From Methylocystis iwaonis (GTDB taxonomy: Bacteria > Pseudomonadota > Alphaproteobacteria > Rhizobiales > Beijerinckiaceae), in assembly GCF_027925385.1 (NCBI RefSeq), contig NZ_AP027142.1, forward strand, positions 1,904,001 to 1,968,000: a stretch of 64,000 nucleotides of DNA, in the 5' to 3' direction. Positions 18,838 to 24,298 of the stretch are shown here, piece after piece (position 1 is the stretch's first letter; each line of letters begins with the position of its first letter). The notes under the pieces were generated by a model that searched no databases, was not told where the DNA came from, and saw only the letters and a program-made list of their open reading frames with translations. The position numbers were made by a program, and so were the translations under genes.

Positions 18838-19625
18838 GCCTTCCTCATCACGTCGAGAAGCTGGCGGTGGATCGCCTCGTTGCCGACGCAGATTTCGCCC
18901 TTGGTCAGCATGTCGGACCCGCCCGAGAGGTCGCTCACGAAGCCGCCGGCCTCGCGCACGAGCACAATGCCCGCCGCGACATCCCAGGAATTGATGCCGC
19001 GCTCCCAATAGCCATCGAAACGGCCGCAGGCGACATTGGCGAGATCCATGGCGGCGGCGCCCATGCGGCGGATATTGCCGATCTTGGCCATGCCGGCCGA
19101 AAGCTCCTTCTTGAAGGATTCATGGTCGCGCGCGCGGGCGAGGGGCGGGATGCCGCAGGCGACCATCGACTCCGCCAGAGACCGGCGCGCGGCGACGCGC
19201 ATGCGCCGATTATTGAAATAGGCGCCCTGGCCCTTTTCGGCGACAAACATCTCGTCCGTCGCGGGATTATAGACCAGCCCGGCGACGAGCTGCCCGTCGC
19301 GCTCCAGAGCCACCGAGACGGCGAAGACGGGGACGCCGTGCAGGAAGTTCGACGTGCCGTCGAGCGGATCGATGTGCCAGGTGTGGCTTTTGTCCGAGCC
19401 TTCGACCGTCCCGCCTTCCTCCATGATGAAGCCATAGCCGGGGCGGGCCTTGGACAACTCCTCGAAAAGGGTCTTCTCGGCGCGCTTGTCGGCGGCGGAA
19501 ACGAAGTCCCCCGGTCCCTTCACCGACACCTGGAGATTTTCGACTTCGCCGAAATCTCGCTTCAGGCCGCGGCCGGCCTTGATGGCGGCGGCGGTCATCA
19601 CATTCATCAAAGCGGAGCGAATCAT
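18834..19625 (-). CDS. suhB: Inositol monophosphatase family protein (SuhB-like)
   Basis: This is a Mg-dependent phosphatase of the FIG superfamily. The 263-aa protein has the signature motifs GYGFIMEEGG (metal-binding Glu), HIDPLDGTSNFLHGVPVFAV and INSWDVAAGIVLVREAGG. The start MIRSALMNVMTAAAIKAGRG fits SuhB-type enzymes; the frame remains open to 19682. Likely substrates are myo-inositol 1-phosphate or related sugar phosphates, and in E. coli SuhB also binds RNA polymerase. A second family member, the hisN-like gene, lies at 25454, so this one is more likely the general enzyme. Confidence 0.9.
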   Translation of the reverse strand: MIRSALMNVMTAAAIKAGRGLKRDFGEVENLQVSVKGPGDFVSAADKRAEKTLFEELSKARPGYGFIMEEGGTVEGSDKSHTWHIDPLDGTSNFLHGVPVFAVSVALERDGQLVAGLVYNPATDEMFVAEKGQGAYFNNRRMRVAARRSLAESMVACGIPPLARARDHESFKKELSAGMAKIGNIRRMGAAAMDLANVACGRFDGYWERGINSWDVAAGIVLVREAGGFVSDLSGGSDMLTKGEICVGNEAIHRQLLDVMRKA

Positions 19626-19726
19626 CGGAAGAAGCCTCGGGGCGCGCAGGGGGGAGCCACGACATGCCTTTCGCTGGTCCATACGTCAAGCATTTGCGAG
19701 GGATTAGCATGGGGGCTGGCAGGGTC

Positions 19727-19741
19727 TTAACTGTGTGTTAA
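19727..19741. promoter_or_regulatory. Candidate CtrA binding site upstream of the 86-aa membrane protein
   Basis: TTAA-CTGTGTG-TTAA matches the CtrA consensus TTAA-N7-TTAA exactly. It lies 51 bp before the ATG at 19792 and 102 bp before the divergent suhB-like start. Confidence 0.65.
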
Positions 19742-19791
19742 GCATTTTAGTCAAATTCTTTACATAATCGCGTTTGAACGGAGCATCGCCG

Positions 19792-20052
19792 ATGGCGAAC
19801 ATGGACGTCGATTTCGGAATGACGCGTCACGATCGGCCTCAGGCCATGATTGCGCTCTATCGTTCCGCGCTCCGCAGCCAGCCCCCGGCTTTTCGGCAGC
19901 CGAAAGCGACGCCGAAATATACGCGTATCGACGCCGGCCAATTTCTCCGGACGGTTGTTCTTCTCGCCCTCTGCTTTGGCGCTTTGCAGCTCCCGCGCGC
20001 CGAAAAGGCGCAGCACGAAAAGCTCGACGCCACTGCGTTTTTCATGCGCTAG
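19792..20052 (+). CDS. Small membrane protein of unknown function behind a CtrA box
   Basis: The 86-aa protein starts at ATG 19792 behind ACGGAGCATC; a TTG at 19774 is a weaker option. It has a soluble basic N-terminal part (about 1-47, with PPAFRQPKATPKYTRI), one hydrophobic segment at about 51-68 (FLRTVVLLALCFGALQL) and a short charged C-terminal tail. A single-pass, probably N-in inner-membrane protein is predicted. I recognise no family. The exact TTAA-N7-TTAA box upstream and the nearby rcdA suggest cell-cycle control. Confidence 0.62.
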   Translation: MANMDVDFGMTRHDRPQAMIALYRSALRSQPPAFRQPKATPKYTRIDAGQFLRTVVLLALCFGALQLPRAEKAQHEKLDATAFFMR

Positions 20053-20109
20053 CGCGTTCTCCGTTCGCAATCATGCGAGCGATGAGGACGTGCGCGGATT
20101 TATAAAGGC

Positions 20110-20162
20110 TGGAGCGCTTTCTCTCCGCAAAAGTCTATCAATTTTTGAGGAGAGAGTGCGCG
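20110..20162. repeat. GAGCGC palindromic repeat, diverged copy C
   Basis: GGAGCGCTTTCTCTCC...GGAGAGAGTGCGC flank the shared centre AAAAGTCTATCAATTTTT. It has the same plan as copies A and B, with different arm sequence kept complementary by paired changes. It lies in the 334-bp gap before rcdA, which otherwise holds only a hairpin and a CtrA box. Confidence 0.6.
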
Positions 20163-20238
20163 CTACTCATTGCAAGTGATTGATTTATCGAAGGCGCCTC
20201 TCGCGTCGAACGAGCTTTGCCTATGGTGAATCCGGTGT

Positions 20239-20256
20239 AGCGCCGGGGCGCTTTTT
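20239..20256 (+). terminator. Short hairpin with T-run
   Basis: AGCGCC-GG-GGCGCT followed by TTTTT. It lies about 190 bp after the small membrane protein gene and before the rcdA promoter box, so it may end the upstream transcript. Confidence 0.45.
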
Positions 20257-20286
20257 ATCGCCGTGGAATAGGCGTCACTGTTAAGG

Positions 20287-20301
20287 TTAAAAAACGCTTA
20301 A
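20287..20301 (+). promoter_or_regulatory. Candidate CtrA binding site of rcdA
   Basis: TTAA-AAAACGC-TTAA is an exact TTAA-N7-TTAA match, preceded by a further TTAA at 20281-20284. It lies 86 bp before the rcdA ATG, a suitable promoter position. Confidence 0.7.
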
Positions 20302-20386
20302 GCAAGCGCGTCTCTGTCAATTGAGCTAAGGTCCCATATATCGAATTTCGCCGGGGCTCGAAGACCGGCATGGGCGTGAGCGTATC

Positions 20387-20923
20387 ATGGGTCGTGTAAG
20401 TGACAGTCGGGGTGAACAGAATCAGCCCGTATCCTTCGTCGAAAAGCTCGCGGGCTCCGAAGCTTTCGGCATGATGTTCAGAGAAGGCATGGGCCTCGTG
20501 GAAGAGGCGGCGGCCTATCTCGACGGCGCGGGCCGCGACGAAGCGAAAGAGCTGCCGCGCACCGAAGCGCTGGCCTATGCCGCCGAAAGCATGCGGCTGA
20601 CGACCCGTTTGATGCAGATCGCCTCGTGGCTCCTCTTGCAGCGCGCGGTGAACCAAGGCGAACTCACCCGCAGCCAGGCGGCAAGCGACCGGCATCGCGT
20701 CAAGCTGCACCAGCAGGAGCTGGCGTCGGCGCCGGATGTCTTCCAGCGCCTCCCGCAGCGTCTGCGCGACCTCGCGCTGCATTCGCTGCGCCTGCAGGCC
20801 CGGATCATCCACCTCGATCAGTTGATTTACGCCGGCCCCGAGGCTGCGCCCGCCAATGCGACGCCCGCGCCAAGCCCGGTCCAGGAGCAACTGGCCAAGC
20901 TGCGCGACGCTTTCGCCCAATAG
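20387..20923 (+). CDS. rcdA: DUF1465 protein, regulator of CtrA degradation RcdA
   Basis: RcdA is a helical adaptor that, with CpdR and PopA, brings the master regulator CtrA to the ClpXP protease. The 178-aa protein carries the family blocks FVEKLAGSEAFGMMFREGMG, LVEEAAAYLDGAGRDEAKEL, YAAESMRLTTRLMQIASWLL and RLPQRLRDLALHSLRLQARI. The C-terminal tail is Pro/Ala-rich and disordered. The ATG at 20387 is the first that covers the family region; a nearby GTG at 20394 is out of frame. rpmE follows convergently, an arrangement I recall from other Rhizobiales. A CtrA box lies upstream. Confidence 0.88.
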   Translation: MGRVSDSRGEQNQPVSFVEKLAGSEAFGMMFREGMGLVEEAAAYLDGAGRDEAKELPRTEALAYAAESMRLTTRLMQIASWLLLQRAVNQGELTRSQAASDRHRVKLHQQELASAPDVFQRLPQRLRDLALHSLRLQARIIHLDQLIYAGPEAAPANATPAPSPVQEQLAKLRDAFAQ

Positions 20924-23923: not shown

Positions 23924-24298
23924 TCAGGCGGCGAGCATGCGTTGAACCTCGGTCACGAGGTCGCGCAGATGGAAGGGCTTGGAGAGAATCTTCGCCTGCC
24001 GCGGGGCTTGATTGTCGGGGTTCAGCGCGACGGCGGCAAAGCCCGTGATGAACATGACCTTGATGTCGGGGTCGAGCTCCGTCGCGCGGCGGGCGAGCTC
24101 GATCCCGTCCATTTCCGGCATGACGATGTCGGTCAGCAGCAGCTCGAAAGGCTCGACCCGGAGCTGGTCATAGGCGGAGAGCCCATTATCGAAGGAGGTC
24201 ACCGAAAAACCCGCCTGCTGTAGCGCCTTCACCAGGAAGCGACGCATGTCGTTGTCGTCTTCGGCGAGCAGGATCTTCGCCGTCGGGCTCTCGTTCAT
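23924..24298 (-). CDS. cpdR: Single-domain response regulator CpdR
   Basis: CpdR, when unphosphorylated, primes ClpXP for degradation of CtrA and other cell-cycle substrates and localises the protease to the pole. The 124-aa receiver-only protein shows the acidic pair in ILLAEDDNDMRRFLVKAL, the phospho-acceptor Asp57 in LLLTDIVMPEMDGIELARRA, the conserved Thr in VMFITGFA and the Lys in AKILSKPFHLRDLV. It has no output domain. It diverges from an N-formylglutamate amidohydrolase gene followed by hisN, a neighbourhood I recall for cpdR in rhizobia. rcdA lies 3 kb away. Confidence 0.9.
   Translation of the reverse strand: MNESPTAKILLAEDDNDMRRFLVKALQQAGFSVTSFDNGLSAYDQLRVEPFELLLTDIVMPEMDGIELARRATELDPDIKVMFITGFAAVALNPDNQAPRQAKILSKPFHLRDLVTEVQRMLAA

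What the first reader, a model, noticed from the sequence alone, without database searches (positions are those of the whole stretch)
19727..20301. Two exact CtrA boxes beside rcdA, one in front of an unknown 86-aa membrane protein
TTAA-N7-TTAA occurs at 19727-19741 and 20287-20301. By eye I saw no other exact match in the window, and both fall in promoter positions. The second precedes rcdA, an adaptor for CtrA proteolysis, so CtrA may drive its own degradation factor. The first precedes an unannotated single-pass protein, which becomes a candidate new member of the CtrA regulon.
Basis: partly seen in the sequence, partly recalled or inferred. Interest (0 to 1): 0.72.

Follow-up and report, generated by a model that had tools for sequence, protein, structure and literature searches.

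The report
CtrA-box promoters at the rcdA locus
Two likely binding sites for a bacterial cell-cycle switch protein sit in front of its own degradation-helper gene and of a small unknown membrane-protein gene; relatives keep the arrangement, and many also carry a small RNA gene there that this strain lacks.

Summary
TTAA-N7-TTAA occurs exactly twice in the window (19727, 20287); shuffles give 0.05. The genome (a Methylocystis) has 28 such sites against about 5 for each of six other spacings. Footprinting supports both. Box C, before rcdA, is kept with at most one mismatch in 37 of 38 genus genomes, but exactly in only 3; the best-kept part is TTAAGGTTAA. Box A occurs in 9 of 16 genomes with a small membrane-protein gene between suhB and rcdA and in 0 of 17 without it. 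CtrA control of rcdA is already reported in Caulobacter; in S. meliloti CtrA binds there without measurable effect, so feedback is plausible, not shown. The unexpected part lies in relatives: a third box (B) followed by the Rfam sRNA BjrC1505. Of 60 matches in 81 genomes, 53 lie 153-315 bp upstream of rcdA, and 48 of 52 examined carry the box at the model's 5' end. The window genome lacks box B and the sRNA together. I found no report linking BjrC1505 to rcdA or CtrA in the papers searched.

The parts
19727..19741 (+). Box A: exact TTAA-N7-TTAA; 50 bases separate it from the ATG of the small ORF and about 100 from the suhB start (the site is near-palindromic, so its direction is not given by sequence)
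   Evidence: <=1 mismatch at this place in 9 of 16 genus genomes with the small ORF and 0 of 17 without it
19780..19783 (+). GGAG, likely ribosome-binding site of the small ORF
   Evidence: read from sequence; GGAG or GAGGAG before the ATG in 6 of the 8 rows shown, the window included
19792..20052 (+). 86-aa protein with one hydrophobic segment (about residues 51-68), no Pfam or NCBIfam family; candidate CtrA-controlled gene
   Evidence: dN/dS 0.22 against the G002 orthologue, other two frames 1.5 and 1.2; relatives at the same place in Methylocystis and Methylosinus
20239..20256 (+). terminator-like hairpin plus T run; probably ends the box A transcript, and sits where the sRNA terminator sits in relatives
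   Evidence: 3 sites found in 19600-20500, two of them this hairpin; 1.2 expected in shuffles; alignment
20281..20301 (+). Conserved rcdA element TTAAGGTTAA-N7-TTAA, containing box C (exact N7 pair 20287-20301)
   Evidence: TTAA-N2-TTAA upstream of rcdA in 37 of 38 and box C with <=1 mismatch in 37 of 38 genus genomes
20327..20332 (+). TAAGGT, inferred -10 hexamer of rcdA (TAnnnT kept in relatives); predicted start of transcription about 20339
   Evidence: inferred by eye; the consensus scan found no sigma-70 promoter in 19600-20500
20387..20923 (+). rcdA, adaptor for ClpXP degradation of CtrA
   Evidence: NF051867 E 4.5e-64; PF07323
18834..19625 (-). inositol monophosphatase family (suhB-like) gene, divergent from the small ORF
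   Evidence: PF00459; start at 19625 chosen by eye, it aligns from residue 1 in the 33 loci

Best explanation
The two sites are genuine CtrA-binding sites in two separate promoters. Box A times expression of a small single-pass inner-membrane protein, and the TTAAGGTTAA-N7-TTAA element times expression of rcdA, so that CtrA can help to make the adaptor that later hands it to ClpXP (delayed negative feedback). They are what remains of a locus that in most of the genus, and in many other Hyphomicrobiales, has a further CtrA-box promoter between them driving the small RNA BjrC1505. Shown here by sequence: the boxes, their spacing-specific excess, their conservation, the co-occurrence of box A with the small gene and of box B with the sRNA. 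Inferred: binding by CtrA, activation rather than repression, start sites, that the sRNA was lost here rather than never present, the membrane topology, and any function of the small protein.
For: Excess over shuffles and over other spacings. CtrA orthologue present. Genes next to other exact N7 sites in this genome include flagellin (two overlapping boxes), FtsK, a prepilin peptidase (Peptidase_A24), a transglycosylase and a GGDEF protein, the kinds of gene expected of a CtrA regulon (30 ORFs from 22 of the 24 other site regions, chosen by length and position; 12 of 30 without a hit at 1e-5). The rcdA element is kept in 37 of 38 genus genomes. Within 800 bp upstream of rcdA exact N7 occurs in 27 of 38 genus genomes, spacings N3-N6 and N8-N13 in at most 3; in 37 other genomes exact N7 occurs in 16, every other spacing N2-N13 in at most 3. 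Box A: 9 of 16 with the ORF, 0 of 17 without. In Methylosinus sporium 5, a related genus, promoters with mapped start sites yield the same TTAA-N7-TTAA motif, assigned to CtrA (PMC12403871, passages). In C. crescentus rcdA has a CtrA motif and ChIP-seq enrichment (PMC4287350, passages).
Against: In S. meliloti CtrA binds at rcdA but depletion does not change rcdA expression; in H. neptunium CtrA does not control it. Box C is exact in only 3 of 38 genomes; most have CTAA as the second half, and TTAA-N2-TTAA (37 of 38) is better kept than the exact N7 pair. With one mismatch allowed, N3 and N13 are about as frequent as N7 in the genus (34, 38 and 37 of 38), because they overlap the same block. 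Box A is missing in 7 of 16 genomes that have the small ORF, and its spacing control is modest (N7 9, N5 5, N9 4, others 1-3 of 16). Genomes of one genus are not independent, so the Fisher value of 0.0003 overstates the case. No box with <=1 mismatch lies within 1 kb of this genome's own ctrA. The genome's backward control equals the pattern count (27 and 28). I read no binding or expression data for this organism.
Confidence: 0.7

Rival explanations
1. CtrA binds here but does not set rcdA levels: binding is neutral, redundant with other control, or in relatives serves mainly the neighbouring sRNA promoter.
For: S. meliloti: ChIP-seq peak at rcdA, no expression change on depletion (PMC4433202, passages). 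The S. meliloti Ak57 locus has two exact boxes upstream of rcdA with a CTCCCTGT motif and a terminator between them, so part of that peak may belong to an sRNA.
Against: The rcdA-proximal element is kept at a fixed place even in genomes without an sRNA match, including this one; CtrA activates rcdA in C. crescentus according to the same paper.
Confidence: 0.2
2. Box A serves suhB, or both divergent genes, rather than the small ORF.
For: It lies about 100 bp from the suhB start and the site is near-palindromic.
Against: 17 genomes keep suhB beside rcdA but lack the small ORF, and none has a site with <=1 mismatch within 130 bp of suhB.
Confidence: 0.12
3. TTAAGGTTAA is the site of a different regulator, and the match to the CtrA consensus is incidental.
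For: TTAA-N2-TTAA is better kept (37 of 38) than the exact N7 pair (3 of 38).
Against: N7 is the favoured exact spacing genome-wide and in other genera; read on the other strand the window's element contains TTAA-N7-TTAAC, the consensus reported for H. neptunium CtrA (PMC7200025).
Confidence: 0.08
4. Chance occurrence in AT-rich intergenic DNA.
For: Exact sites at this genome's other spacings occur about five times each, so some of the 28 are chance.
Against: Two in 575 bp, and conservation across the genus.
Confidence: 0.04

Closest known systems
CtrA-controlled rcdA promoter of Caulobacter crescentus
   Same: CtrA motif upstream of rcdA; ChIP-seq enrichment and a cell-cycle-regulated start site reported (PMC4287350, passages)
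   Different: Here the predicted start lies about 52 bp from the first base of the box, whereas that paper puts full motifs near -35 (for example -39 at ctrA P2); the first half is a doubled TTAAGGTTAA; no expression data
rcdA locus of Sinorhizobium meliloti
   Same: Two exact boxes upstream of rcdA (L210, strain Ak57); CtrA ChIP-seq peak
   Different: In Ak57 the upstream box is followed by CTCCCTGT and a terminator, an sRNA-like unit that the window lacks; the annotated gene upstream of rcdA is a DUF1192 gene, not a suhB and small membrane-protein pair
sRNA BjrC1505 (RF02356)
   Same: In relatives it lies at the same place, between box B and box C
   Different: No match in the window or in G000 at E<=1e-3
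CcnA, a CtrA-associated noncoding RNA of C. crescentus
   Same: A noncoding RNA with a predicted CtrA site in its promoter (PMC8959179, passages)
   Different: Not compared by sequence here; BjrC1505 matched none of the 14 control genomes, among which names Caulobacter vibrioides
EcpR1 and GspR, cell-cycle sRNAs of S. meliloti
   Same: sRNAs acting on cell-cycle regulators: dnaA and gcrA for EcpR1, ctrA for GspR (PMC4414408 and PMC5928217, passages and one abstract)
   Different: EcpR1 lies beside rpmG and GspR between SMc03844 and SMc03845; neither paper names rcdA

Membership tests
CtrA-binding site / CtrA regulon member | Match to TTAA-N7-TTAA beyond chance | tested here: met
   (backward control does not separate; see observation check)
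CtrA-binding site / CtrA regulon member | CtrA orthologue in the genome | tested here: met
   NF045991, 423 bits, cut-off 350
CtrA-binding site / CtrA regulon member | Site conserved at the same promoter in relatives | tested here: met
   box C <=1 mismatch 37 of 38, exact 3 of 38; box A 9 of 16 with the ORF
CtrA-binding site / CtrA regulon member | Bound by CtrA and transcription depends on CtrA | not testable with these tools
   needs ChIP-seq and depletion; in S. meliloti rcdA is bound but not affected
CtrA-binding site / CtrA regulon member | Box near -35 of a start site, as for C. crescentus full motifs | tested here: inconclusive
   start sites only inferred by eye: box starts about -40 for box B in relatives, about -52 for box C; C. 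crescentus positions
RcdA protease adaptor | Equivalog model over its cut-off | tested here: met
   NF051867 215.2 bits, cut-off 170
BjrC1505 sRNA (in the window) | Rfam covariance model match | tested here: not met
   no match in the window at gathering score, in 19600-20500 at E<=10, or in G000 at E<=1e-3

The most novel reading that the evidence does not exclude
The rcdA locus of many Hyphomicrobiales is a compact CtrA feedback module: one CtrA-box promoter makes the adaptor that destroys CtrA, and an upstream one makes the sRNA BjrC1505, whose Rfam model includes that promoter as roughly its first 45 positions. The sRNA (about 95 nt, with a CCUCCCUG segment that could pair with ribosome-binding sites) would be a CtrA-timed post-transcriptional arm beside the proteolytic arm; this would explain why CtrA binds at rcdA in S. 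meliloti without changing rcdA mRNA. The window's lineage has dropped the sRNA arm and keeps, with part of its genus, a CtrA-box gene for a small membrane protein.
Probability: 0.5. Interest if true: 0.65.

Novelty: new member of a known kind. Interest (0 to 1): 0.45.

Why it matters
CtrA is a main cell-cycle regulator of alphaproteobacteria, and how it is wired to its own destruction differs between species. The locus gives a defined, testable promoter array in methanotrophs, adds one predicted small membrane protein to the CtrA regulon, and, through relatives, ties a little-studied sRNA family to the CtrA/RcdA circuit, offering a concrete explanation for an unexplained result in S. meliloti (binding at rcdA with no effect on rcdA).

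Tried and rejected
Box A as a suhB promoter: set low on co-occurrence. A relocated BjrC1505 in this genome: the two exact GACGCCTCCCTG matches among the 60 listed were fetched; neither has the GAGCCGC...GCGGCTC hairpin or an exact box within the 412 bases taken. CtrA autoregulation through a box: none with <=1 mismatch within 1 kb of ctrA. Cleavable signal peptide in the small protein: an A-x-A-like end occurs in some relatives but not in others (by eye), so I keep a membrane anchor. The whole-class comparison of rcdA and the sRNA was only partly done (see below). No structure was predicted for the 86-aa protein; a single hydrophobic segment with few close homologues promised little.

Rows dropped or not looked at: rcdA was found in 77 of 81 genomes; upstream DNA was examined in 75 (G039 and G062 not fetched). 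Of 53 sRNA matches next to rcdA, 52 had DNA at hand. 49 distinct sRNA bodies were extracted, 37 of them aligned. 5 of 38 genus loci had no suhB within reach and were left out of the box A count. The weak small-ORF hit of L037 (E 0.006) is one of those 5. Flanking ORFs of two of the 24 other site regions (L174, L186) were not scanned. Rfam was run on 20 of the 80 loci (11 of 20 over the cut-off; none in three Methylosinus, two Methylocella, Methylocapsa, Beijerinckia, Kaistia, Methylocystis sp. Sn-Cys). The literature search asked for either of two terms and listed 5 of 12,649 papers, so it says nothing. Of the 5 papers I saw passages of four, not of PMC7566177.

Full report
What is there. The window comes from a Methylocystis: its rcdA protein is 100% identical to that of Methylocystis sp. 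Sn-Cys, with 13 silent differences in the gene. TTAA-N7-TTAA occurs exactly twice in 64 kb, at 19727 and 20287, against 0.05 expected from shuffles. The whole genome has 28 exact sites, while the seven spacings N4 to N10 together give 60: 28 for N7 and on average 5.3 for each other spacing. The tool's backward control for N7 (27) is as high as the count itself; over N4-N10 that control gives 193 against 60, so AATT pairs are simply commoner, and I rely on the spacing comparison. The genome has a clear CtrA orthologue at G000:C1:3075255, although no box with at most one mismatch lies within 1 kb of it.

Is the box a CtrA box in this organism? I fetched DNA around the other 26 exact sites, 24 regions, and scanned 30 ORFs from 22 of those regions, chosen by length and position because no gene caller was at hand. 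Hits include flagellin (two overlapping boxes), FtsK, a Peptidase_A24 prepilin peptidase, two outer-membrane beta-barrel proteins, a transglycosylase, LptF/LptG and a GGDEF protein, together with plain housekeeping genes and plasmid ParA-like ATPases; 12 of 30 had no Pfam hit at 1e-5. This mix fits a CtrA regulon but does not prove it. Independent support: in Methylosinus sporium 5, start-site mapping produced the same TTAA-N7-TTAA motif, assigned to CtrA (PMC12403871, passages).

The rcdA element. In 38 genomes of the genus, the block TTAAGGTTAA-N7-(C/T)TAA, followed by a TAnnnT hexamer, stands out upstream of rcdA. Exact TTAA-N2-TTAA occurs within 800 bp upstream in 37 of 38. Box C with at most one mismatch is present in 37 of 38 (the exception, L017, has two); in L023, L036 and L051 it lies about 115 bp further upstream. 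The exact N7 pair at this place is found only in the window and two relatives (L020, L026, L018). From the TAnnnT at 20327-20332 the start would lie near 20339 and the first base of the box about 52 bp upstream of it; this is inferred by eye, and a sigma-70 consensus scan found no promoter.

The small gene. The ORF 19792-20052 has no Pfam or NCBIfam hit at E<=1 and six database homologues at E<=0.01. Against the G002 orthologue it shows dN/dS 0.22, against 1.5 and 1.2 in the two other frames, so it is very probably a real protein-coding gene, evolving faster than rcdA (0.05). By direct protein search 10 of 81 genomes match, the window's included. An iterated profile finds 30 ORFs at E<=0.01 among the 155 loci searched (several loci are the same genome fetched twice), including Methylosinus; all 30 lie upstream of rcdA on its strand and share Q-x-x-R before one hydrophobic segment. 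The first base of box A sits 60-77 bp before the start codon in 9 of 16 genus genomes that have the gene next to suhB (5 exact, 4 with one mismatch), and there is no such box in the 17 that have suhB but not the gene. The spacing control is N7 9, N5 5, N9 4, others 1-3 of 16. That is moderate evidence that box A belongs to the small gene. A terminator-like hairpin at 20239-20256 suggests it is transcribed apart from rcdA.

The third box. 27 of 38 genus genomes have a box with at most one mismatch (24 exact) 253-287 bp before rcdA, or 349-381 bp in five of them (box B); the window does not. Between box B and box C lies a conserved stretch ending in a terminator, which Rfam recognises as the sRNA BjrC1505. 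Over 81 genomes, 58 have a match at E<=1e-3 and 49 are over the cut-off. Of the 60 matches, 53 end 153-315 bp before the start of the RcdA profile match, on its strand; four are on other contigs than rcdA in genomes with one match, one is a second copy in G072, and two are in G065, which has no rcdA hit. At the 5' end of the model (-5 to 25) 35 of 52 carry an exact box and 48 of 52 one with at most one mismatch; in a wider stretch N7 is exact in 37 of 52, every other spacing N3-N13 in at most 2, and N2 in 11 (the TTAACCTTAA form). Because the box starts near model position 8, the first 45 or so positions are probably promoter, and the RNA begins 36-40 nt after the first base of the box. In the remaining body 11 of 16 predicted pairs have at least one double change that keeps the pair, although the alignment's covariation term is small (-0.67 kcal/mol) and no shuffle control was run. 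In an even draw of 190 class genomes, 19 match and 9 are over the cut-off, 8 of those 19 (one in the window's family, seven labelled same class) have the match 173-568 bp upstream of rcdA on the same strand, two have it 1.5 and 3.4 kb upstream, four have it on another contig, two have it about 41 kb away, and three have no rcdA hit.

Absence in the window. The window and G000 as a whole have no BjrC1505 match, no box B, and the two exact copies of the sRNA's 12-base motif elsewhere are not the sRNA. Across the genus the two go together: all 25 genomes with an sRNA match beside rcdA have a box with at most one mismatch at its 5' end. Of the 12 genus genomes without a match, nine, the window's included, have no such box 240-400 bp before rcdA (L060 has two one-mismatch sites at -170 and -159). 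The other three are G002, with a degenerate form (29.7 bits) and a one-mismatch box; G025 (L037), with an exact box and the body visible by eye; and G034 (L030), with the body visible and a contig end where the box would be. In the 38th genome, G032, sRNA and rcdA are on different contigs. This co-occurrence supports box B as the sRNA's promoter, and the remnant in G002 suggests loss rather than original absence in the window.

Sinorhizobium. In S. meliloti Ak57 (record labelled pSymB, 3.7 Mb) the rcdA gene is preceded by two exact boxes (L210 2165 and 2339) with CTCCCTGT and a terminator between them; Rfam gives no BjrC1505 match there at E<=0.1, and a weak one in Shinella (31.7 bits). PMC4433202 (passages) reports CtrA ChIP-seq binding at rcdA in S. 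meliloti with no change of rcdA on CtrA depletion. An sRNA promoter under the same peak would reconcile these; this is my inference. PMC10469942 (passages) reports several start sites and predicted CtrA sites upstream of the agrobacterial rcdA (atu3742), further upstream than in Caulobacter, which fits.

What is known. CtrA control of rcdA: predicted for cluster A alphaproteobacteria (PMC2877005, passages), motif and ChIP-seq in C. crescentus (PMC4287350, passages), motif with a start site in S. meliloti (PMC3616915, passages), no control in H. neptunium (PMC7200025, passages). For BjrC1505, the held library has one paper, a name in a table; searches for its sister sRNAs and accession and for sRNA with CtrA, rcdA or DUF1465 gave no link in what I saw (one search was uninformative). 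The founding paper on BjrC1505 (Madhugiri and co-workers, recalled; not held) was not seen; I recall from its abstract, unverified, that the RNA is less abundant in nodules. Most subscription papers are outside this library.

Judgement. The most interesting result lies beside the finding: a little-studied sRNA family tied to rcdA behind a CtrA box, which this particular genome lacks.

Noticed in passing
window 23924-24298 (-): cpdR (NF046022, 197.4 bits, cut-off 180), another CtrA-proteolysis adaptor, lies 3 kb from rcdA; no CtrA box with <=1 mismatch is near it.
   Followed up: partly
L047 1148-1288, L012 2204-2344 and other relatives: Rfam family BjrC1505 appears to include its promoter: the first positions of the model carry a TTAA-N7-TTAA box.
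   Followed up: yes
L210 2165-2353: S. meliloti Ak57 has two exact CtrA boxes upstream of rcdA with an sRNA-like unit between them that Rfam does not call.
   Followed up: partly
G000:C1:566001-566026 (L172): Two overlapping exact CtrA boxes upstream of a flagellin gene.
   Followed up: no
G000:C1:3662318-3664376 (L189): Two exact boxes whose starts are 44 bp apart, between a BTLCP-type peptidase gene and a 124-aa ORF without Pfam hit.
   Followed up: no
L023, L036, L051, L061: Inserts of roughly 110-120 bp: between box C and the rcdA coding sequence in L023, L036 and L051, between box B and box C in L061; inverted-repeat sequence is visible in L036, L051 and L061.
   Followed up: no
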